Source: Paralichthys olivaceus (Eukaryota > Chordata > Actinopteri > Pleuronectiformes > Paralichthyidae). Taken from it: DNA of 64,000 nt. The translations under genes and the position numbers were made by a program. The number at the start of each line of letters is the position of its first letter. Within the stretch, counting starts at the first letter, position 1. The stretch spans positions 19,635,501 to 19,699,500 of the forward strand of contig NC_091099.1 in assembly GCF_024713975.1 (NCBI RefSeq), in the 5' to 3' direction. Below are positions 47,146 through 58,843 of this stretch, one piece after another. Under the pieces are notes generated by a model. That model did no database searches. It saw nothing but the letters and a program-made list of their open reading frames with translations, and was not told where the DNA came from.

Positions 47146-48729
47146 GCTTCAGCTGCTGGAATGACACATGCATAAGACACATTTGAAACGTTCATGTAAG
47201 AGACACACAATGGCATAATGTACTGCACAATATAATAGGGCTAGTGGTCATGCAATATATATGCACAAAAGGAAATGATAAAGGTCTTATAATTACTTCA
47301 GGTAGTCATCATGTTCAAATAAAGCCCTTCGGGTAAGACAATAAAGCATTAATTTATGACTTCTTTTTCTATATACTTTACTCCAGACCTTCTTAAGGAT
47401 GAATAATTGTCATGCCATCGCTACTATGTGTGACAATGTTCTAAATATAATTCAAGGAGGAGCTATTTAAGACATAGCTCCACAGGATCAACAGGGAGAC
47501 TGTAAAGTTCAAAACAGAGTGTCAGATTTGTGAATCCTAAATCGATTTATGGAAATACAAGAAACAGCAATTTGCTGGGTGCTACCTTAACATCTAGACA
47601 TCAGTCTAGATCCAGATCAAAAAGCACTGAACCTGGACTTGTCTAATCTGGACCACAACTTAAGCAGAAGCTAATAACAGTTTGAAATAAGGTTAAGGTG
47701 ATTCCACAACCTTGTTAGTGACGGCGAAAGTTGCAATTAAAAGTCAATTCATCTATCAAATTAAAATGAACAATGCATGATCATTTCGAGGGATGTAGTT
47801 TAGTCTCAGGTGCTGTTGACAGGTGTTCCTAATATTTTGTCCAACACGTTAAAATCAATGCGTGTAAACTAAACGACAGACAAACTTCATTTTATAATGC
47901 AATACAGTTCTACAGTAACCTCTGTTACTTTCATTAGAACAGGATTCATTGCAGGACTACATCAGATTTATATGTATGTTCTTGACAAGGAACATATAAA
48001 CATGAGCACATAAATGAAACAATATCTTTAAACTTGATACTGACAAAGGTGCACACTTCAAGTCAAAGCCTCAAGTTCAGGCAATAACACATAACTACCT
48101 TTAAGACGAGTGTCATGTCAGTGACTGTTTTAATGGAGCATGATCCCAGACATATTTCTATATAAGGACACATGTAATTGTGCTCAGGTAAAACACCAAG
48201 CCTGGTGATTTGGAGCAGTAGGGATTGTGATCGAGCTTTGTTTACGCCTTCATTTAACAAGTACGTTTAGCTTCATGTATCACTGATATCAAAGACCAGC
48301 ATTTACAGGACCTGCATGTTACTATAGACGATATTCGACTTGTCTTCACCTGGCTCTGATCTGATGTCAGTATCTGCTGTCGCCGGTGCTGTTTTTGGCG
48401 CTTGTTGATTTGAATGTAGTATCTGGTGCTAGCTAGTTAGCACGCTAGGCTATGCTATGATGTACACAAGCATGAGTTGCCACAAATGTCGCTATGATCG
48501 TAAACATAATGTGACAAGCGTGTGGAGCCAGCGGTGTTGTCAGGCTGTCGCTGGCACTGACGGCACGTATTTACGGTCAGATACGCTTATAACGCCCTGT
48601 CATAACGGAGCTAGCGTGTTAGCCACCGTGCTAACTCCTGTGGTAACAACGCAAAAAAAAAAAAAAAAAAACCCGCTGTCACGACTTTTTATTTCACGGC
48701 TGTCATGAAACAGTTTCTCGAATACCACC

Positions 48730-49450
48730 AGGCTAGAAGCACGCACTCGGTAGCGGCGAGCATCTGGAGTCTCTGCTGACTGTGTGTGCGGGCTGAAGGG
48801 GAAGCTAGCTGCCTCCGTGTAGCTTCAAGCCGTGAAATTAGCAACGCAGTTCGGAAACAAGACCGGGGAACCGCTGAGCTAAGAAACGATAACATAAGCA
48901 TTTTGACCCGCGGGGTGTCACTTTATTTCAGCTAAAACTGTCCTCTCTGTGCGTCCTGAGAGTCCGCGCCGCAGCGTGTCGCGCCCCGCTCCTAGTAGAG
49001 ATGGCTGTAGGAATAATGCACACTGGGTAAAAACCAATTTATAAACTAACCTCCGAAAAATTTCCAACAATTCCTCCTGTTCGACCACCATGCACCAGTG
49101 CAGGAAACGCTCCGTGGTGCCCGCACGCCGGGAACATGTACAGCAGCACTGTCCCCCGGCCCGCCCCCCTGCGCACCAGGCCCCGTGGTTGGCTGGAGGC
49201 GCACAAATCCCGCTGCTATTGGCCAATCGACATGTCCATCAGTGACGATTCGACGCTGGCGTTTGCAGCTATTCATCTTCCCGGGCCCCTGCCAGACGCC
49301 ATTCCGCGTCGGTTTTCATATTGTCTACGGGTTCGGACTGAAAAGGCGAAGCGCCCTCGTCGGAAATTAATATTTAAATTTGAACGCAAGACGCGGTCCG
49401 ACTGAGGCCGTGTGTTCCCGAGCCGCAGTGAGCCGCGGGATGCGGTTAAG
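48730..49450 (-). promoter_or_regulatory. CpG-rich znf143 promoter and probable first non-coding exon
   Basis: The stretch is GC- and CpG-dense (GTCCGCGCCGCAGCGTGTCGC, CCCGCACGCCGGGAAC). It contains a self-complementary ATTGGCCAAT at 49218-49227, which is two overlapping CCAAT boxes on opposite strands. It lies 1.6-2.3 kb upstream of the znf143 start codon, as expected for the family's untranslated first exon. No clear ZNF143/SBS motif (CCCAGCATGC type) was found here. Confidence 0.5.
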
Positions 49451-51180
49451 TTCGGTTTTTAAAGCGACGTAAACAGCGACGTGTGGGGAGGTTTTTCAGC
49501 CTCCATGTTGAAAACAAGGTGATGTGGGAAAAACAGAGGGAATGTGGGCAATGGAGTGAAGAGAGATCTGTCACAGTGGGGCTAGCATCACATCTGGAAT
49601 ACACAGGCGGCTGAAGAATCAATAAACGAATCATTGAAAAACACAACCAATGCAGATGTTTCCACACGTGTTCACTACATGGTGTACTTCGACAATCATG
49701 CTATAATTCATCATCACAAAGTTCATTTGAGTGATCAGATAAAGAAACATCTCCCTCTTGAAGGGAGGGGTCTCCTCTAAAGTTTAACGACTTGACCAGG
49801 GTCACTGGGTAAGATTATGAAAATGATGTGATTGATATTCTTATAGTATCTGTGGGATATTGGTCCATGTTAGATAGTGCTCCACATCACCATCATCAAA
49901 AGACCAAATGGAGGAATATTTTTAAAGTAATGTGCCCTTCCCTGATTCACAAATCTGTTTAAGGTCACATTAAAGCTGAGCTGTTGGCTCATGATGGTCC
50001 AACATTGTTAATGTTGGTTTCGACACTTTTGCATAAGGTCTGCATCGTTAAAATGCATAAAGTCTAAATATAAAGTGACCTATGTAAAGTGTTTTACAGT
50101 TTACTTACACAAAATATCATTTTGCACAGTAGTGTTTATAATATGTTCATATTTTCTGCATTTTTAAGTGAATTTCCCAACGTGGGATCAATAAATCTGA
50201 TCTTATTATAAAATAATCTATGTAGTATAGTACGTCATTATTTGTGCTGTTTGTTCAAATGCCCAGGCACAGAAAGGTGTACTTAATAACCTGTTCACCT
50301 CAAACAATCATACAGTTGAATCATTTAAATTATGTGGTTTGTGGTGCTGTTGAATTATACTGGATAATGCAGCCTCCAGAGAAGTTGTAGCAGCACGTAA
50401 CCTCAGATGTCCCAGTTGTCCTAAACTCAGAGGCAAAGAATTTCACAGTATGACTCCAGACCTGCCGAGCGCAGCTTTACCGAAGGTCTTTACTTATTGG
50501 TTTAGTGAGCAACAGAGTCTCAACCAGGATATACACTCAGCTCAGGTACACTGACATAATTTACAACCAAGCTGCCATGGAATCATTTTTTATGCTGCAC
50601 ATAATCAATTGTGTTAAAACTGATGTAAGATGTAATTCAGTGATATTTGATACTGACTGAGGTCATTGTAATTAGTGGTGTTGGAAACATGTTTTTGGTA
50701 TAAATCCAAAAAAAAAGAGATGATTCTTTTGTCATGTGTTCATGGTGAAAGTTCATACGTGTGTGAATTCATTTTACCAGCACATGTGATTACTGATGCC
50801 TTTCCATTGTTTCTCGTGTTTCTCTGGTTGAAAATGTTGCTCAGCATATTGTTGTCAATTTACAAAGCAATGCATTTTAGAAAAGAGCTGTGCTGGTACA
50901 CTTTTTAACTAAACTTTAAACATGGAGTTACATCCACATAAATAGATCACTCACAAAAAAGAAAAGTGCAATATAAAGAAAAAATATTTACATCAAAATA
51001 GGAAACAAATTGAAAAGTGCATTGTGGATTAACATTTATGGAATTTGAAGAGAAGCAAAATCCAAATGATGAGGGGAAAGCATAATCGTCCTTGTCACTA
51101 TACTCAAGACAAACAAGAGTAATATTCAACAAGTCAAAAGTAAAGTCAGAGACAATATTGTCAACAATAACAGAGTTAGT
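49451..51180. other. Spacer between znf143 and the Harbinger gene pair
   Basis: No gene supported. At about 50165-50215 (plus) there is a retroposon tail phrase, AGTGAATTTCCCAACGTGGG followed by ATCAATAAA and ATCTTATTA, the usual end of Rex-type LINEs. The first clear CpG-rich sequence of the next gene begins near 51185. Confidence 0.5.
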
Positions 51181-51251
51181 CACAGCGGAAGCAGCGTCAT
51201 CTGCGGCGCGTCGTCGAACGCGAGTTCAGGAGCGAGCATGAACCTGCTGCT

Positions 51252-52662
51252 ATGGATGAGCTGCGATCAAAGCCTCCAGCCGTGAAGCGGAAAAAAGAGG
51301 AAGAAGTGGACGGAGGACTCGGAGGAATCGAACTGGAAACCAGACTGAGCGAGCAGGTCCGTCTGCACAGACACCTGTACGACCACTCCATGAGGGAGCA
51401 CCGAGACCACCACATGGCTCAGAGGTCCTGGGGGAAGATCGCGCAGACTCTCGGGAAAGACGAGGTGTTCTGCAGGAAAGTGTGGAAGAACCTCCGCGAC
51501 CGATACGTACGGGCGAAGAAACGCGTGCACGCTCGCAGCGGCGAGGCTGAAGAAGAGAAGCCGTCACCGATTGTCATGGACATGGAGTGGCTGTGTGACT
51601 TCGTCAAACACCGGGAGAAGGACACGGAGGTATAGAAGATGGGTCTGATTTGACTTTGTTGTCGGTTTAATATTTGTCTTCTGCTTCGACTGTAGCACAG
51701 TAACATTCCCCTCTTGTTTTCATTGTGGAGGAAAATGTGTTTTTGTTTATTGTAGTTGTTGGATGACATTTGCTATGTTGCATGGTTCATAACTTTGGGG
51801 TTCTAATGCTGAATATAATATCAACGTCCCACCATGCTCCTTAACGGTGTTTAAAAAGTGGCAAGTTATATTTTAACCAGATTTGCAGCAGTATTTGTGG
51901 ACATGTTTTTGGGTTATCTCTAATGCGTTTCACAGAGACACAAAGACCACTGGAAGAAGTGGGACACCAATAATAACAAAAAGTAAACGTGCAAAACATT
52001 TTCAGTTTCTCAGGGAATAATTCATGGATCTTCATTACTGATATCTATGAGTGTGAAATTTTGTGCAGCTTGACTGAATTAAAGGCGACTGTAGGGCCTT
52101 GGCTGTGGTCTGAGCTCTACTGACTGCCAAATCAAGCATCACAATTCTTTCACAGTTTTCTAATATAACAGGAACTGATCAAAATGCTAACTTATTTTTG
52201 TTTTTGCATCAGGGAACTGCAACAAAACCGTGCAGTCCTGCAGAGGAGTCACCAGACATCTGCTCAACAGCGGAATACCTATCATCACCAATAATTCTCT
52301 CTGCCTATTCCACCGCATCATGCCTTCCACCATCTCCCTCACCTACAGAGTCCCCATCACCTTGCCTCGGTGCGCCCTCGCCTTCGCCGTCCGCATCTGG
52401 ACGAAAAAGGACGCACAACGACGAGTCCTTATCTTTGAGGTTGGAGAAGCTGCAGGTGGAGAGGATGAAGTTCATGCAACAGTTCAGAGAGAACCAGAAT
52501 AAGCAGGACCAGCAGCAACAAGACACACCACACACACGGTTTGCTCGGGTTTTAGTGGACATGCTGGCTACAGTTGATGAGGCATACCAGCAAGAGGCCA
52601 TGCACAAACTGTACCAAGTCATGTATGAGTACACTACAAAATACCCACGGCTGCCATCCTGA
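51252..52662 (+). CDS. MADF/Myb-like DNA-binding protein of a PIF/Harbinger pair (2 exons, 275 aa)
   Basis: In PIF/Harbinger elements a second protein with a Myb/SANT/MADF domain binds the element ends and carries the nuclease to the nucleus; this has that form. Exon 1 is 51252-51629 (126 codons) with donor GAG|GTATAG; exon 2 is 52213-52662 after GCATCAG, phase 0. The MADF-type domain lies at about residues 30-120 (WGKIAQTLGKDEVFCRKVWKNLRDRYVRAKK, then MEWLCDFVKH). A Ser/Pro-rich linker follows, then a C-terminal BESS-like helix pair (FARVLVDMLATVDEAYQQEA). An AATAAA lies at 52780-52785. The frame is fully open. It converges on the DDE gene at 53288-55265 with 625 bp between stops. Whether it is part of a mobile element or a domesticated host gene is not decided by this sequence. 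Confidence 0.85.
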
Positions 52663-52785
52663 CATTGTGTTCTGTGCTGTCCTCATTTACTGTTTTTTTC
52701 TCTTATCATTGTTGCATTGCATTTCATTGTTGAGTTGCTATTGTTAATTATTATTGTTTGACGTGGGGTTGCATTGTGTAATAAA

Positions 52786-53287
52786 ACCTCTGTTTGCTTA
52801 CCGTATGCTTTTGATTGCTTTAACCCTGCACAGGCAGGAGGATTGTAGTGGCTCAAAGATTGGTCTGTGATCGCTCAAGAGACATGGCACCCATTCTCCA
52901 GATGAGAACATTCAGTCCCTGCCACTACCCAATATGCTCCTGTACAGCTCATTATGCTCTCTACTTAGCATATTAAATGTAATAAATCTCTTCAGAGTAG
53001 TTCTATCCACTCTCCCAAGAACATTCTCACCAGTCCCTGAACAACCATGCTCCTAGACATGTGGGGGCACCAGCTATTTACTCCTCAATATTATTGAGAT
53101 TAGATTATGCAAATGTCTGTGTGTAAAAGAAATATCACCTTCAAACTGAGGAGATAATAAGGAGAACTTGATGCTTTTCTTATGTGAAGTAAGGAATAAT
53201 AATTTAAAAAAAACATAGGTACCACAATTTAGCTAAATATTTTAATGCACAATCAACAAGGCCACTTGAGTTCAGGGAACCTCTGAA
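52786..53287. other. Spacer between the two convergent Harbinger-type genes
   Basis: Both transcripts end into this 500-bp A+T-rich stretch. No repeat ends or further open frames were recognised. Confidence 0.5.
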
Positions 53288-55265
53288 TTACAGGGATAAG
53301 AGTCCTTGCGATGTTAGGAAAAATGATTTCAGGTTATTCCTCGCCGCAATTGCAGCATGGGATGCACGTGTGCAGCAGACTCTCCCTGGGTCTCTCAGGT
53401 TAGTGTGTCTTGTCACAAGGCTCCTCCACTCACCAGGTATGAGTTCACCCGATGCCGCTGTGTTGTCCGTGAAGTTGGGTGGGATGTAGCGGCGGCACAT
53501 TGGAGAATCTGCAACATCACTGTGTGCAAGCATGTTGTGGAGGGCAACACATGCCTTCACGACGTCCACAGCCTTTTCTGGGTTATATTCAATGGGCCTA
53601 CCCAGAATCTTCCAGCGTGCGACCAAGATGCCAAAAGTGTTTTCAATGACCCTCAGGGCCCGTGAGTGGCGGCAGTTGTAGGTCTTCTGAGCATCATCCA
53701 GATTGACACCTGCAACATTTACAAAAGATATTGTAATGAGATTAAACAAAAATACCAATATCAGAGCCACTCTTCATAAGATAAGATGTATTGATGATGA
53801 TGCTGTATTGATCCCGCCTAGAGGAAATTAACTTGTCATAGCAGCAGATGGTCAGAATGAGGTAGACCAGAGAGACTTTTACAGAGTATAAAATAGAACA
53901 ATATATGGCAATAAATTTAAAAATATAAAGTAAAACTTTTTATGCAGCAGTCTGCTGCTGAAGGAGCTGCTTAGGGCCCCCACAGTGTCATGTACAGCAG
54001 GGATACTGAGAGACAGTCTATATAATTCCATTAGATACGATCACAAAAACTACACTGAATATTCTGAAAATAAATAAGAAATAAATTAAATTGTCATGCA
54101 TAGTCAACTTTTTAGCCTTGTAGTAACAGTCCCTGGCCAGTGGGAGGGTACTGCAGAAGCCCCCTCAGCAGACTGTGGTCAAGTGACAACCTTTGTCAGA
54201 AATTATGGAATAAAGGGATTTTACAGTAGAGTAAAAGATTTGCTCGTCCCGTATCATGGACTACCTGCATTTGCCATACATTCTGTAATACGTGCGCACT
54301 TGAAATCAGGAAAAGAAGAAGTCTGCTCACTTGACCGCGGTCTCAGCATCCCTACCTCCAGTATCCTTGACGCAGGCCGGGCTGAGAGGTGTTCATGATG
54401 GATTTCACTCACAAAAAGTGTAGTGCTTAAATGCATTACCTGAGTATGGCCGCATTAAGTTCTCGTGCAGAGGGAAGGCAGCATCTCCCAGGAAGACATG
54501 GGGCAGCCTGGTGCTGGAGCCGGGCAGGGTCACAGGTTGTGGGAGCTCCAGAGTTTTCTGCACGAGTCTCGACCCAAAGCGACTGATGCGGAAAACCCTC
54601 CTCTCGTTCTCACAGTCATATGATGCAATGTCCACCACCGTGAACCGGTGGTGCGCGTCACAGGCGGCGAACAAGTCAATGGACTGTGCGCCGTTACAGT
54701 GGACAGAGTCAGTGCCTGTCCTGATGCTAACGCGTCTGTCGTCTATACAACCCACACAGTTAGGGAAGTCCCACAGTCTCCAGAAGTCCTGTGCGATATC
54801 CGTCCATTCAGTCCCTTTAGGCAGAGACACATAGTCCTCCTCCAGCGCCTGCCAGATGGCCGAGCACATCTCAGACACGATGCGGGACACGGTGGTCACC
54901 CCCAGCTTGTAGCTGTCAGCGACACATTTCTGGCTGCTTCCGGACGCCAGCAGCCTCAGAGTGACCGCCAGCCTCTCCTGCACACCCACCGGGCTGCTGT
55001 GGGTCCTGTCGTGGCGAATGAACGGCTCGACCCGGCGGAGCAGGTCGTCGAACCGATGCGCAGACATCCCAAAATAGCTGAAGTGCATCCCCTCGTCCAG
55101 CGTCCTCATGGGTTTCACCAGGACGCTGAATTCTCCCAGGACACTCCTGTCCTCGTTGGGAGGACGAACTGACCACCGTCTCTTCCGTCGCCTTTTAGCC
55201 AGCAAGCTGAGGATTAAGAGTTCCTCCTCCTCGAACATCTGCAAGATCATCTGAGCCGCCGCCAT
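53288..55265 (-). CDS. PIF/Harbinger DDE nuclease, HARBI1-like (2 exons, 415 aa)
   Basis: The product is a DDE_Tnp_4 family protein, the catalytic partner in PIF/Harbinger transposition and the family that gave the host gene HARBI1. Exon 1 is 54440-55265 (275 codons plus 1 nt), donor CAG|GTAATG. Exon 2 is 53288-53709, acceptor GTTGCAG. The frame is open throughout. The HTH-like region is near 95-130 (SSQKCVADSYKLGVTTVSRI). The candidate catalytic triad is D175 (VGCIDDRR), D261 (FLGDAAFPL) and E298 (RVIENTFGILVARW). The usual IDG after the first Asp is IDD here, and the NYKG-type block is altered to HCNGAQS. HARBI1 is about 350 aa. The 730-bp intron holds a LINE tail. Terminal inverted repeats were not found on either side of the pair, so domestication is possible. 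Confidence 0.87.
53775..54040 (-). mobile_element. LINE 3' end (Rex-like) inside the nuclease intron
   Basis: Read on the plus strand it begins with AAGATAAGATGTATTGATG, then TGATCCCGCCTAGAGGAAATT, the reverse complement of a Rex-type LINE tail. AATGAGGTAGACCAGAGAGAC with TTTTACAGAGTATAAAAT and a GCAGTCTGCTGCTGAAGGAGC-like block follow. It is a truncated copy, antisense on the plus strand and therefore in the same sense as the nuclease gene. Confidence 0.6.
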
Positions 55266-55275
55266 TCAGTTTGTT

Positions 55276-55312
55276 TTCTTCTTCTTCTTCTTCTTCTTCT
55301 TCTTCTTCTTCT
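55276..55312. repeat. (CTT)n microsatellite
   Basis: About twelve CTT units, 11 bp upstream of the nuclease start codon, so GAA repeats in that gene's 5' UTR. Confidence 0.95.
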
Positions 55313-56006
55313 CTGGATGAGGCTGCCGCATAATTTCTTAGCTTTACCGCCCCCCAGCTGGTGAAGTGTGGATCAGGCTGTCATATTTATATTATCTATT
55401 CAAGGCGCTTTAATGTCCTCTACCGTTTGTTATTAAAGTTCTTATTAACATTCTGATCACATTTTTTTTACATAGGCAAGGCAATTTCATTAACAGAGCA
55501 CATGTCATGCACGGAGGTAGATTCAAGATGCTGAACAGGAACATTCAAACCAACACAGAGACAGAATTATAAGACAAAAATGTAAATCTGAAAGCACAGT
55601 AATCAAAAATTAAAAAGTGTACAATAAAAGAGATAAAAGAAATAAAAATGATAAATCTGTATCAACATTTAAAAATAAGTTGAAAGGGAAAAATACAAAT
55701 TTAACAAAATATGATGATGACTTGTGAATAAAAACCTTTCTACCGGGTAGATATAGAGACTGTGGAATTAATATTCTACTTAAATGAAATTTATTGTGAG
55801 CCAGTTATGAATGCCATAATAAAAATTATGAATTCCTTTTAAGAACATTTCTGCATCCCCCCCCCCTCTCTCTCTCTCTGTTGACGGACGGTTTCTCAGT
55901 GGCGACACCTATCGTTCTGGAGAAAACTGCAGTGAGTCGCCATATCATCGCGGTGGGGGACAGGACAGACTCTCGCAGCCTCGGTCTGACTCATTTACCC
56001 GCCGTC
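55313..56006. other. Spacer and nrip3 upstream region
   Basis: Contains TTACCGCCCCCCAGCTGGTG at about 55345-55365, then A+T-rich DNA, then a C7 and (CT)n run at 55858-55880. From about 55890 CpGs appear (ATCATCGCGGTGGGGGAC, CTCTCGCAGCCTCGG), marking the nrip3 promoter or 5' UTR. An ATG at 55881 is in frame with nrip3 and would add 42 residues, but family members start at the inner ATG. Confidence 0.5.
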
Positions 56007-58843
56007 ATGTTCCCAGGGATGCGGGTGGAGGAGCAGGAGGACGCCGCGGCTCTGAGGCAGCAGAGGAGACTGAAACAGGCGATCAGGTTCCTGCATAAAG
56101 ACTCCGCTGATCTGCTGCCTCTGGATGGACTCAAGATGCTCGGCACTTCTAAACAAGGGGTGAGCCCCACCTGACAGGCCTTCTAACACACTTATCACAT
56201 CCATCATATTAGGACTTGTTCACCGTTTAAACTGGCTGAGCCTCTACCTTTATTTTAGATACCTCTTTTATCAATATTAAACAAATCCAATTTATTATTA
56301 GTCAGAATCATCACCCAGTATTTATTTCTAATTTCTAATTGTCATTCAGAATGTATTTACACCTATAATATGACACAGACATTGTTTTCTTGAAGCTTCT
56401 TCTGAATGCAAATGTTCTAATTCAACATTATTCGTTTCATTGTCATCATGAACATGTTTCACGTAACATTTTCCTTTCCAACCAAAATCCCCCCCTTTCA
56501 CAGTGACACAAAAGGTGCCTGTCTGGTGTGAAGCAGGTGAACATTGGACGCATGAAGAACATGGGATGTTTGAAGAACATGTTACACTTGCAGCATCTGC
56601 TCCTCACAAAGCCCTCACATCCTGACATTTCACAGCTCCCCTCCTCATTTGATTGCAAGGGGCAGTGGTATATTTCAACAGCCAAACAAACCTCAACGAC
56701 TGTGAAAATGTGATACTGCATGTGTCCATGTCTCTTAATCTGACATTTACATTTTACTGACACCCTTGAACTCAAACCTATAAGTAACTTGGTACAACTT
56801 CTTGTTGAAGTATGTAAGTAACATTTACTCTCATTTTAGTTTATCTGCATGTTCTCCGGACACTGAAGAAGCTCAGAAGTTCATCAGGCAGTGACCTTAT
56901 ACAGTATTGACTGCAGCTCCACAGAAATGAAATGAGAACTCGGCCCATTTTCTAACCAAGCTCCTATTGTTTTGTATTTTGACTGCAGCAGCCGCACCAT
57001 ATTCTGCAGAAGCGCATGCTGGAGGCCAAGCTTTCCCGGGAAAGGATTAACTTGTGCGAAGTGACGGTGAACAACGGGGGGGTCCTCCTGAGCTGCAGTC
57101 CTTTAAATTCACGTGAAGACGAGGAAGAAGAGAGGGAATATTTGATTTATGTGCAATGTAAGGTGAGTGGAAGATGGCCAGTTGGTAACGGTGCATATAA
57201 TTTGTAGATAAAAAAAAAGATACAGTATTACAGTTGCTTCATGAAGTTAAGTCATTTGCATCCTTCATACAACCATTTCCACCTTGACCTCCTTTGCGTG
57301 TCTGCAGTGCGTAGGACAGGAGGTGAATGTGCTGATCGACACGGGCTGCAAACTGAACCTGATGTCCTCTCTGACTGTGGAGACGTTAGGGTGAGAGGAT
57401 TCAGAGCAAGCACTCTCAGCATCTTACCGTTTGTCTGACATTAGTTCATTTTCAATATCCAGAGGGTAATGCTTTTGTTTCTCTCAAAGTTTGAAAGAGC
57501 TGGTGGAGGAGAACAAAGTGGAGATGGATGGGTTTCCATTTCAGAGTAAACTCTACATCGACGGCCACATCAAGGGGCTCAGTCTGACCATCGGACAACT
57601 CAGGATAATGTGCTCATTTGCCATACTTGGTAAGGAAGAGAAATACGAGTGATTCAAGAGTAGAAATGCCTCACTGAGACTGTAACCACTCTGATATTAT
57701 TGTCCAACAATATGTATTTGCAGAAAGTGACAGGCCCCTGATGTCGCTGGGAAACAAAACCCTTAAGTCACTGAAGGTAAATCATTTCCTTCACCTCGAC
57801 TTCATCTTCAGAAACATATAAACACTGTAGATATGATAATAACTAACTGACTTTGCTCATGCAATGTGTTATCTTTTAAAAGTGTGTTATTGACACTGAA
57901 AAGCAGATGTTGGTGTTTGGGACAGCTGTGAGGGAGCAAGTTCCATTTGCTAAAAAGCCATTCAGAGAAAGGTAACATGATCATTTCATCTCCTTTAATT
58001 CATTGTCACTGTCTGAGTACATGTCCTCTTTTACAAACACATTTCATTTAGAAAAATGAGAATCAAGTTACTGTGTCATTGCAAACAAACTGCATATTGT
58101 TGCAAAAAGCTCATCCTAAATGCAGTTTGGGAAACTGTTGCATGTTTCATGCTTTATTTTGTTCTTGGACATAACAGAGAAACAAGCAGAAATAAAATAA
58201 CAAAACATATTAAACTCAGCAGATTACAAACTAAGGCTCAAGTACTAAGGCTGAAGTAATTAAATATTTTAATTACTACTTAAGTATCTTTCTTATACCT
58301 GTAATTCTCTTTAAGCCGTAGTAGTACAAAATAGTTGTAATACACCATTTATTTGGTATCTGCAGATACTTGTACTTACTAGTTACTTTGCAAATGAAAA
58401 TTTTCAAAACCTATAATGAGCATTGAAATGTAAAGTAGTTACTGAAAAATTGGCTCATGTTAAAATAGCCATAATATTATAAAGCAGCTTGCATGCAACT
58501 GAATTAATAATAACCATAAACATATATTGTTTATTATTACTTATAATAATATCACAAAGACAGAGCCCATTTTGGCTGCATAGTGAGTCATTTTACTTGC
58601 TACATTTTTACTTAATGATAACTTGAACGTGTGTTGTTAACTTCACTTAAATTACAGATACTTATTCCTGCTCTGCTTAAAACTGAATGCATTGTTGGTA
58701 ATACAAGTCTTTTTAAAAGAAAACTGTGGTCTAATCAGCATGTGTAACATATAAAGACACAAATCTTAATTTAAACAGGTCGTTTCTGCTTCTTCTTCTC
58801 TTTGTGCAGCAGCTCCTCTGACTTCGGAGACCTGGGATACTGA
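56007..58843 (+). CDS. nrip3: Nuclear receptor-interacting protein 3 (7 coding exons, 241 aa)
   Basis: A vertebrate host protein with a retropepsin-like fold, in the NRIP2/NRIP3 group; its cellular role is poorly defined. Exons: 56007-56159, 56989-57162, 57308-57390, 57490-57629, 57724-57776, 57883-57971, 58810-58843; phases close. The total of 241 aa equals human NRIP3 as I recall it. The N-terminus has LRQQRRLKQAIRFLHKDSAD and LLPLDGLKMLG, the family hallmark. The protease-like domain holds VLIDTGCKLNLMS, with the DTG catalytic-type motif intact near residue 120. It continues through SLTIGQLRIMCSFAIL and LKSLKCVIDTEKQML. The C-terminus is Ser-rich (SSSDFGDLGY). The last intron (838 bp) carries a diverged DNA repeat. 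Next to it on human 11p15.4 lie TMEM9B, ASCL3 and C11orf16, which fits the neighbour seen here. Confidence 0.95.
58234..58690. repeat. Degenerate ACTTAAGTA-type MITE in nrip3 intron 6
   Basis: CTCAAGTACTAAGGCTGAAG, CTACTTAAGTATC, GATACTTGTACTTACTAGTT ACTTTGCA-like and ATTTTACTTGCTACATTTTT phrases identify the fish repeat rich in 'ACTTTTACTTAAGTA'. It is heavily diverged. A second copy is at 60007-60395. Confidence 0.5.

What the first reader, a model, noticed from the sequence alone, without database searches (positions are those of the whole stretch)
51252..55265. Intact two-gene PIF/Harbinger unit between znf143 and nrip3
A MADF-type DNA-binding gene and a HARBI1-like DDE gene lie tail-to-tail, both with open frames, introns that splice in phase, and all three candidate catalytic acids. 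This is the standard gene content of an autonomous Harbinger transposon, yet no matching terminal inverted repeats were found near 51.1 or 55.4 kb. A complete, end-less pair can mean a jointly domesticated nuclease and DNA-binding partner, comparable to HARBI1/NAIF1.
Basis: partly seen in the sequence, partly recalled or inferred. Interest (0 to 1): 0.72.

Follow-up and report, generated by a model that had tools for sequence, protein, structure and literature searches.

The report
Likely domesticated Harbinger gene pair, fish
Two neighbouring genes in a fish genome, left over from an old jumping gene, look as if they can no longer jump but have stayed intact, so the fish has probably put them to use as a DNA-binding protein and its partner.

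Summary
A MADF gene (51252-52662, +, 2 exons, 275 aa) and a HARBI1/DDE_Tnp_4 gene (55265-53288, -, 2 exons, 415 aa) lie tail to tail between znf143 and nrip3, open and spliceable. One detail is wrong: not all three catalytic acids are present. Aligned to intact Harbinger transposases of the same genome (LDGKH / RESDGG / IENTFG), the focal protein reads IDDRR / CENERR / IENTFG: the second Asp is Glu, and the motifs around the first two acids are rewritten. The MADF domain keeps its three tryptophans.

In the 588-Mb genome the best-scoring relatives are only 55% (transposase exon 1) and 40% (MADF exon 1) identical. They belong to a true mobile family with the same tail-to-tail layout, TIRs of up to 37 bp, TAA/TTA duplications, and 386 TIR hits. 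That TIR is absent at the focal site. Both introns carry other interspersed repeats; both start codons lie in CpG islands.

Best reading: a Harbinger insertion immobilised and kept as a DNA-binding protein plus a probably nuclease-dead partner, working like HDP1/HDP2 of Arabidopsis; not HARBI1/NAIF1. Conserved synteny, selection on the pair and expression could not be tested. A new member of a known kind.

The parts
51252..51629 (+). MADF gene, exon 1 (MADF domain; Trp 60, 78, 113 all kept)
   Evidence: (PF10545, 1.7e-14)
51630..52212 (+). MADF gene intron (GT-AG), carrying an old interspersed repeat at about 52001-52129
   Evidence: repeat: (40 of 41 matches fall in query 2-130); 13 of 120 core positions differ from the consensus of 7 other copies
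52213..52662 (+). MADF gene, exon 2 with stop; C-terminal region weakly similar to that of the mobile relatives' MADF protein
   Evidence: score 80 against a maximum of 76 in 200 shuffles
52780..52785 (+). AATAAA polyadenylation-signal-like site after the MADF gene
54440..55265 (-). HARBI1/ALP1-like gene, exon 1: D175 kept; the second catalytic Asp column is E221
53710..54439 (-). HARBI1-like gene intron, same position and phase as the second intron of the mobile relatives; carries another interspersed repeat (about 54173-54349)
53288..53709 (-). HARBI1-like gene, exon 2 with stop; contains the third catalytic acid E298
51101..51700 (.). CpG island over the start of the MADF gene
54751..55350 (.). 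CpG island over the start of the HARBI1-like gene (a second called stretch, 54401-54950, overlaps it)

Best explanation
An old PIF/Harbinger element landed between znf143 and nrip3, lost its ends and its ability to move, and both of its genes were kept by the host. The MADF protein still binds DNA (three tryptophans kept; basic runs that could act as nuclear signals). The transposase-like protein keeps the Harbinger fold and, by analogy, still binds the C-terminal part of its partner and enters the nucleus with it. Its nuclease centre has been rewritten (second Asp is Glu, GKH to DRR, SDGG to NERR, four-residue loop deletion), so it most likely no longer cuts DNA and serves as a bridging or chromatin-recruiting subunit. 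Shown: gene structures, no close copy in this genome, absence of recognisable ends, active-site changes, repeats in both introns. Inferred: loss of cutting, protein interaction, DNA binding, host function, selection.
For: No close copy in the 588-Mb genome: the best-scoring other match is 55% over residues 13-205 for transposase exon 1 (67 of 67 candidates scored; highest identity anywhere 60%, over 35 residues) and 40% over residues 27-124 for MADF exon 1 (81 of 81 scored; highest 62%, over 26 residues). Local mobile relatives keep both genes tail to tail (8 of 12 fetched loci), TIRs with TAA/TTA duplications (4 of 5 family-1 loci; in L043 the left end was not found), uninterrupted 440-aa DDE frames in L040 and L042, and 386 TIR hits against 0 for the reversed control. 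Their TIR is absent at the focal site. From D1 to D2, 23 of 36 family-invariant residues are changed against 32 of 142 elsewhere (p 4.6e-6; block chosen after inspection, invariants lean on one recalled composite). Both introns hold other repeats. At 10% neutral divergence both frames would stay stop-free with P 0.002. CpG islands at both starts.
Against: No orthologue from another species, no selection test on the pair itself and no transcript data were available. dS to the mobile relatives is saturated (about 2.5; 37 of 107 four-fold sites identical), so dN/dS (0.40/2.5) says only that the lineages were constrained over their whole history, part of it as a transposon. The intron repeat may have been in the element before it stopped moving; at 5% divergence the stop-free P is 0.04, not negligible. 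Asp-to-Glu is a mild change. With L040/L042 alone as reference the active-site concentration is weaker (37 of 56 against 182 of 378, p 0.015). Ends too diverged for the scans would have been missed.
Confidence: 0.68

Rival explanations
1. A decaying relic: the last copy of an extinct Harbinger family that by chance still has open frames and has no host function.
For: No expression or cross-species evidence excludes it. Active-site changes and loss of ends are what decay would also give.
Against: Two genes, four exons and four splice sites are all intact. The intron repeat differs from its consensus at 13 of 120 core positions; neutral decay of 10% would leave both frames stop-free with P 0.002, indels not counted (0.04 at 5%). 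Residues outside the active site, including much of the C-terminal part, are conserved.
Confidence: 0.22
2. A live or recently mobile element of a low-copy family whose diverged ends were not recognised.
For: Complete gene content in the standard arrangement; a distant relative is clearly recent in this genome (L040 and L042, dS 0.02).
Against: No close second copy; no TIR with duplication in the scans; altered D2.
Confidence: 0.04
3. Only the MADF gene is used by the host as a transcription factor, as claimed for ADF-1L of the miiuy croaker, and the transposase-like gene is a passenger.
For: The MADF domain keeps all three tryptophans while the nuclease motifs are eroded. A Harbinger-derived MADF gene with a tested role is reported in a fish (PMC11893794; abstract, section 7 and passages seen).
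Against: The transposase-like frame (415 aa) is just as intact. No RNA family, 7SL included, reaches Rfam's threshold in the window, so this does not look like the published ADF-1L neighbourhood.
Confidence: 0.06

Closest known systems
HDP1/HDP2 of Arabidopsis (Harbinger-derived pair in the IDM histone acetyltransferase complex)
   Same: The nuclease-derived partner has lost the DDE triad while the DNA-binding partner keeps its tryptophans; both come from Harbinger (PMC7282668, passages).
   Different: Plant, so an independent origin (inference); there the nuclease-derived partner contacts IDM1. No partner is known here.
ALP1/ALP2 of Arabidopsis (PRC2 accessory pair)
   Same: Co-domesticated Harbinger pair; ALP1 reads DGA in place of DDE (PMC4671723, passages).
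   Different: ALP2 has lost the DNA-binding tryptophans; the focal MADF protein has three in its domain.
DPLG7/DPM7 (Drosophila), APLG/APM (Anopheles), LPLG2/LPM2 (Lepidoptera)
   Same: Transposase and MADF/Myb-like genes kept together after one PIF insertion (PMC9710019, passages).
   Different: Supported there by synteny and selection across species; not testable here.
HARBI1/NAIF1 of vertebrates
   Same: Harbinger nuclease and DNA-binding partner, both domesticated (PMC9710019, passages).
   Different: Not orthologous: 23% identity (74 of 327) to recalled HARBI1 against 53% (218 of 413) to local mobile Harbinger; the partner is MADF, not the NAIF1 Myb type (NAIF1 domain recalled).
ADF-1L of Miichthys miiuy
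   Same: Harbinger-derived MADF gene in a fish (PMC11893794).
   Different: That gene lies about 800 bp upstream of a 7SL gene; no 7SL match in this window; no transposase partner is mentioned in the parts seen.
Harbinger family of this genome (L040-L044)
   Same: Same two genes tail to tail; the second transposase intron is at the same position and phase.
   Different: TIRs, TAA/TTA duplications, uninterrupted DDE frames in L040 and L042, an extra intron of 122-123 bp, many further TIR hits.

Membership tests
Autonomous PIF/Harbinger transposon | Two genes: DDE transposase and Myb/SANT-like (MADF) DNA-binding protein | tested here: met
Autonomous PIF/Harbinger transposon | Terminal inverted repeats flanked by 3-bp target duplications | tested here: not met
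   (strongly diverged ends could be missed); the local mobile family does show them
Autonomous PIF/Harbinger transposon | Complete DDE triad | tested here: not met
   second Asp column is E221
Autonomous PIF/Harbinger transposon | Further close copies in the genome | tested here: not met
   best-scoring other matches 55% and 40% aa identity; no DNA-level copy of 52000-54000 other than a shared repeat (40 of 801 candidates scored); 54440-56000 not answered
Co-domesticated Harbinger pair | Single copy, no mobile ends, intact frames | tested here: met
Co-domesticated Harbinger pair | Same position in distant species | not testable with these tools
   says the genome has no relatives in the held set; other collections gave no relative (transposase; MADF exon 1: viral contigs only)
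Co-domesticated Harbinger pair | Purifying selection after immobilisation | tested here: inconclusive
   indirect only: stop-free frames despite an old intron repeat; pairwise dS saturated
Co-domesticated Harbinger pair | Expressed as spliced transcripts | not testable with these tools
   no RNA data; CpG islands and splice sites only
HARBI1/NAIF1 orthologues | Closer to HARBI1 and NAIF1 than to mobile Harbinger | tested here: not met

The most novel reading that the evidence does not exclude
A fish-lineage Harbinger pair has been domesticated as a nuclease-dead partner plus a DNA-binding MADF protein, in a genome where a related TIR-bearing Harbinger family with several hundred TIR hits has amplified recently. 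The pair could act as a host regulator or repressor that recognises Harbinger-type ends and so gained a ready-made network of binding sites. This would be a vertebrate counterpart of HDP1/HDP2, separate from HARBI1/NAIF1.
Probability: 0.12. Interest if true: 0.75.

Novelty: new member of a known kind. Interest (0 to 1): 0.47.

Why it matters
Co-domestication of both Harbinger proteins is documented in plants and insects; in vertebrates the passages seen name HARBI1/NAIF1. A second vertebrate pair, still side by side, with the nuclease centre lost and DNA binding apparently kept, would test whether Harbinger pairs repeatedly become chromatin or transcription factors. Because recent mobile relatives sit in the same genome, one could ask directly whether the retained DNA-binding protein still recognises Harbinger ends.

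Tried and rejected
Rejected: (1) tail-to-tail order as a sign of domestication, because mobile copies share it. (2) The 28-nt, 82% inverted pair at 50333-50360 / 56668-56695 as termini: its right arm lies beyond the first coding exon of nrip3; its flanking bases were not tested for a duplication. (3) HARBI1 orthology. (4) The published ADF-1L/7SL locus: no 7SL match in the window. (5) Relatives of the transposase in viral, plasmid, phage and prokaryote collections, and of MADF exon 1 in viral contigs: none at the sensitivity. (6) Solved structures: no relative by sequence (one hit at E 0.88, judged chance). (7) Pairwise dN/dS as proof of selection: dS is saturated. (9) The first repeat alignment mixed strands and was discarded; replace it (22 of 132 positions over the longer stretch, 13 of 120 in the core). 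Papers on this locus: (ZNF143, NRIP3, synteny) 0 papers; the listings showed none whose title points to this locus. PMC10027918 was also looked at (passages) and not used.
Full report
WHAT IS THERE. The MADF gene has exons 51252-51629 and 52213-52662, GT-AG, in phase, 275 aa, PF10545 E 1.7e-14. The transposase-like gene has exons 55265-54440 and 53709-53288, GT-AG, in phase, 415 aa, PF13359 E 1.9e-18. A second possible donor at 54413 also keeps the frame; 54440 is preferred because mobile relatives have an intron at the same position and phase. The transposase-like gene and nrip3 are head to head, their ATGs 742 bp apart. CpG islands cover both start codons.

THE GENOME. The window is G000:C7:19635501-19699500 of a 588-Mb assembly in 25 contigs. 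Transposase exon 1 as a protein query had 67 candidates, all scored, and 74 matches. One is the focal gene at 100%; the next by score is 55% identical over residues 13-205, and the highest identity of any other match is 60%, over 35 residues. MADF exon 1 had 81 candidates, all scored, and 37 matches; the next by score is 40% identical over residues 27-124, the highest 62%, over 26 residues. As DNA, 52000-54000 matched only itself, apart from a repeat in query 2-130 (40 of 41 matches; 40 of 801 candidates scored). The DNA search of 54440-56000 did not complete by the machine.

THE MOBILE RELATIVES. I fetched 12 loci with transposase relatives (plus one overlapping the window). In 8 of the 12 a MADF relative lies beside the transposase, in all 8 tail to tail; the other 4 are L045, L047, L050 and L051. 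For L047 the MADF match lies across the edge of the fetched stretch. Family 1 (L040-L044) is 90-99% identical between copies in the aligned stretches over 1 kb. Its inverted ends begin AGCCTAGTTTATGCTTCTGCG. Four of five loci show both ends with matching TAA or TTA duplications, element lengths 3022-4299 bp; for the fifth (L043) the left end was not found. The ends are identical over 37 bp in L042 and less alike in L041 and L044. L040 and L042 carry uninterrupted 440-aa transposases with LDGKH, RESDGG and IENTFG, when the second intron is read as GC-AG; L041 is also uninterrupted but has N at the second acid; the 5' part of L043 is not recognisable; L044 lacks a recognisable first splice donor; L046-L049 meet a stop at codon 91. 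The TIR pattern with up to 1 mismatch occurs 199 + 187 times, with 0 + 0 for the reversed control; among the first 100 places listed many pair about 400-500 bp apart in opposite orientation, as short non-autonomous copies would. So true Harbinger transposons exist in this genome and the focal pair is not one of that family.

THE ENDS ARE GONE. In 49800-51250 against 55266-56600 no TIR with a 3-bp duplication was found in 3 of 3 scans; shuffles gave means of 0.35, 0.3 and 0, so absence is informative only for well-preserved ends. The first 24 bases of the mobile family's TIR are not found in the window even with 7 mismatches. Local alignment of its first 40 or 200 bases to the focal flanks is within the range of 200 shuffles (smallest fraction reaching the observed score 0.05). 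One whole-window comparison (200 bases of the right end, + strand) exceeded all 10 of its shuffles; its place was not examined.

THE ACTIVE SITE. Alignment with L040, L041, L042, a recalled ALP1-like composite and recalled HARBI1 puts focal E221 in the second-Asp column and D217 in a Gly column. BLASTP of the focal protein against recalled HARBI1 alone instead placed D217 against that Asp, with a gap; the ungapped alignment to the much closer local copies is preferred. Independently, the Pfam DDE_Tnp_4 score does not fall when D217 (67.8 to 71.0) or E221 (67.7) becomes Ala, but falls for E298 (63.3); the composite falls from 121.1 to 116.7 at its second Asp. The Pfam match starts only at profile position 24, missing the first-Asp segment, though D175 aligns. 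Between residues 173 and 224, 23 of 36 residues invariant in L040, L042 and the composite are changed, against 32 of 142 elsewhere (p 4.6e-6); with HARBI1 added 9 of 16 against 8 of 38 (p 0.022); with L040/L042 alone 37 of 56 against 182 of 378 (p 0.015). The block was chosen after looking. Mutating one residue of the triad drastically reduces transposition by rice Ping (stated in PMC4671723, passages). The MADF protein has three tryptophans, 60, 78 and 113, all in the domain; three tryptophans are reported as needed for DNA binding in Harbinger Myb proteins (PMC7282668, passages), and that these are the equivalent ones is my inference.

TREE. In a small tree the focal protein sits on a long branch (0.56) next to the local mobile family, apart from the composite, L050, L051 and HARBI1; with eight sequences, two of them recalled, this is only a sketch.

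AGE AND PRESERVATION. The MADF intron holds a repeat copy differing from the consensus of 7 others at 13 of 120 core positions (22 of 132 over a longer stretch). The other intron holds a different repeat at about 54173-54349: all 77 matches other than the focal one fall in query 462-638, 78-96% identical (40 of 105 candidates scored). A neutral simulation with substitutions only gives P of no stop in either frame of 0.04 at 5% and 0.002 at 10% divergence. This argues for selection since the repeat arrived, provided the repeat came after immobilisation. Pairwise dN/dS to the mobile copies (0.40/2.5) is uninformative about the host phase because dS is saturated and only 37 of 107 four-fold sites match.

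HOW IT PROBABLY WORKS. In studied Harbinger systems the Myb-like protein interacts with the transposase, allows nuclear import and binds the TIRs (PMC9179366, part 1 of 6; parts 2 and 3 also read), with contact between the transposase N-terminus and the Myb C-terminus (PMC7282668, passages). The focal pair keeps both proteins; both have basic runs, and the C-terminal part of the MADF protein aligns weakly to that of the mobile family (score 80, maximum of 200 shuffles 76). The likeliest product is a DNA-binding complex without cutting activity, used for transcription or chromatin control, like HDP1/HDP2. Interaction, DNA binding and target genes are inference.

KNOWN OR NEW. Harbinger co-domestication is established in insects (PMC9710019, passages) and plants, and HARBI1/NAIF1 in vertebrates. 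This pair is not HARBI1/NAIF1 and does not look like the croaker ADF-1L neighbourhood. If synteny and selection confirm it, it is a new member of a known kind, with the interesting setting of recent mobile relatives in the same genome.

Noticed in passing
L051 (G000:C10:6350538-6351185, - strand): A 432-aa stop-to-stop frame related to HARBI1 in which all three catalytic columns are substituted (A, E, Q in place of D, D, E). Another candidate nuclease-dead domesticate; its own copy number was not tested.
   Followed up: partly
L050 (G000:C23:14719314-14719700, - strand): An ALP1-like transposase relative with all three acids, in a 272-aa open frame plus an upstream exon-like match; no match to the focal MADF protein in the fetched 9.9 kb.
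   Followed up: partly
L046-L049 and other places: A second, broken Harbinger subfamily; the four fetched copies (contigs C3, C17, C15, C13) share long stretches at 93-99% identity well beyond the transposase gene.
   Followed up: partly
window 54173-54349 and 52001-52129: Two different interspersed repeats common in this genome sit in the introns of the pair.
   Followed up: partly
G000:C5, 25.0-26.7 Mb: Eight distant Harbinger transposase matches (27-33% identity, each with one TGA inside) spread over about 1.7 Mb of one contig.
   Followed up: no
window 48501-49600: Strong CpG island without a recognised coding exon, perhaps the znf143 promoter.
   Followed up: no
L040-L044: A recent Harbinger family with TAA/TTA duplications and 386 TIR hits, apparently including many short non-autonomous copies.
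   Followed up: partly
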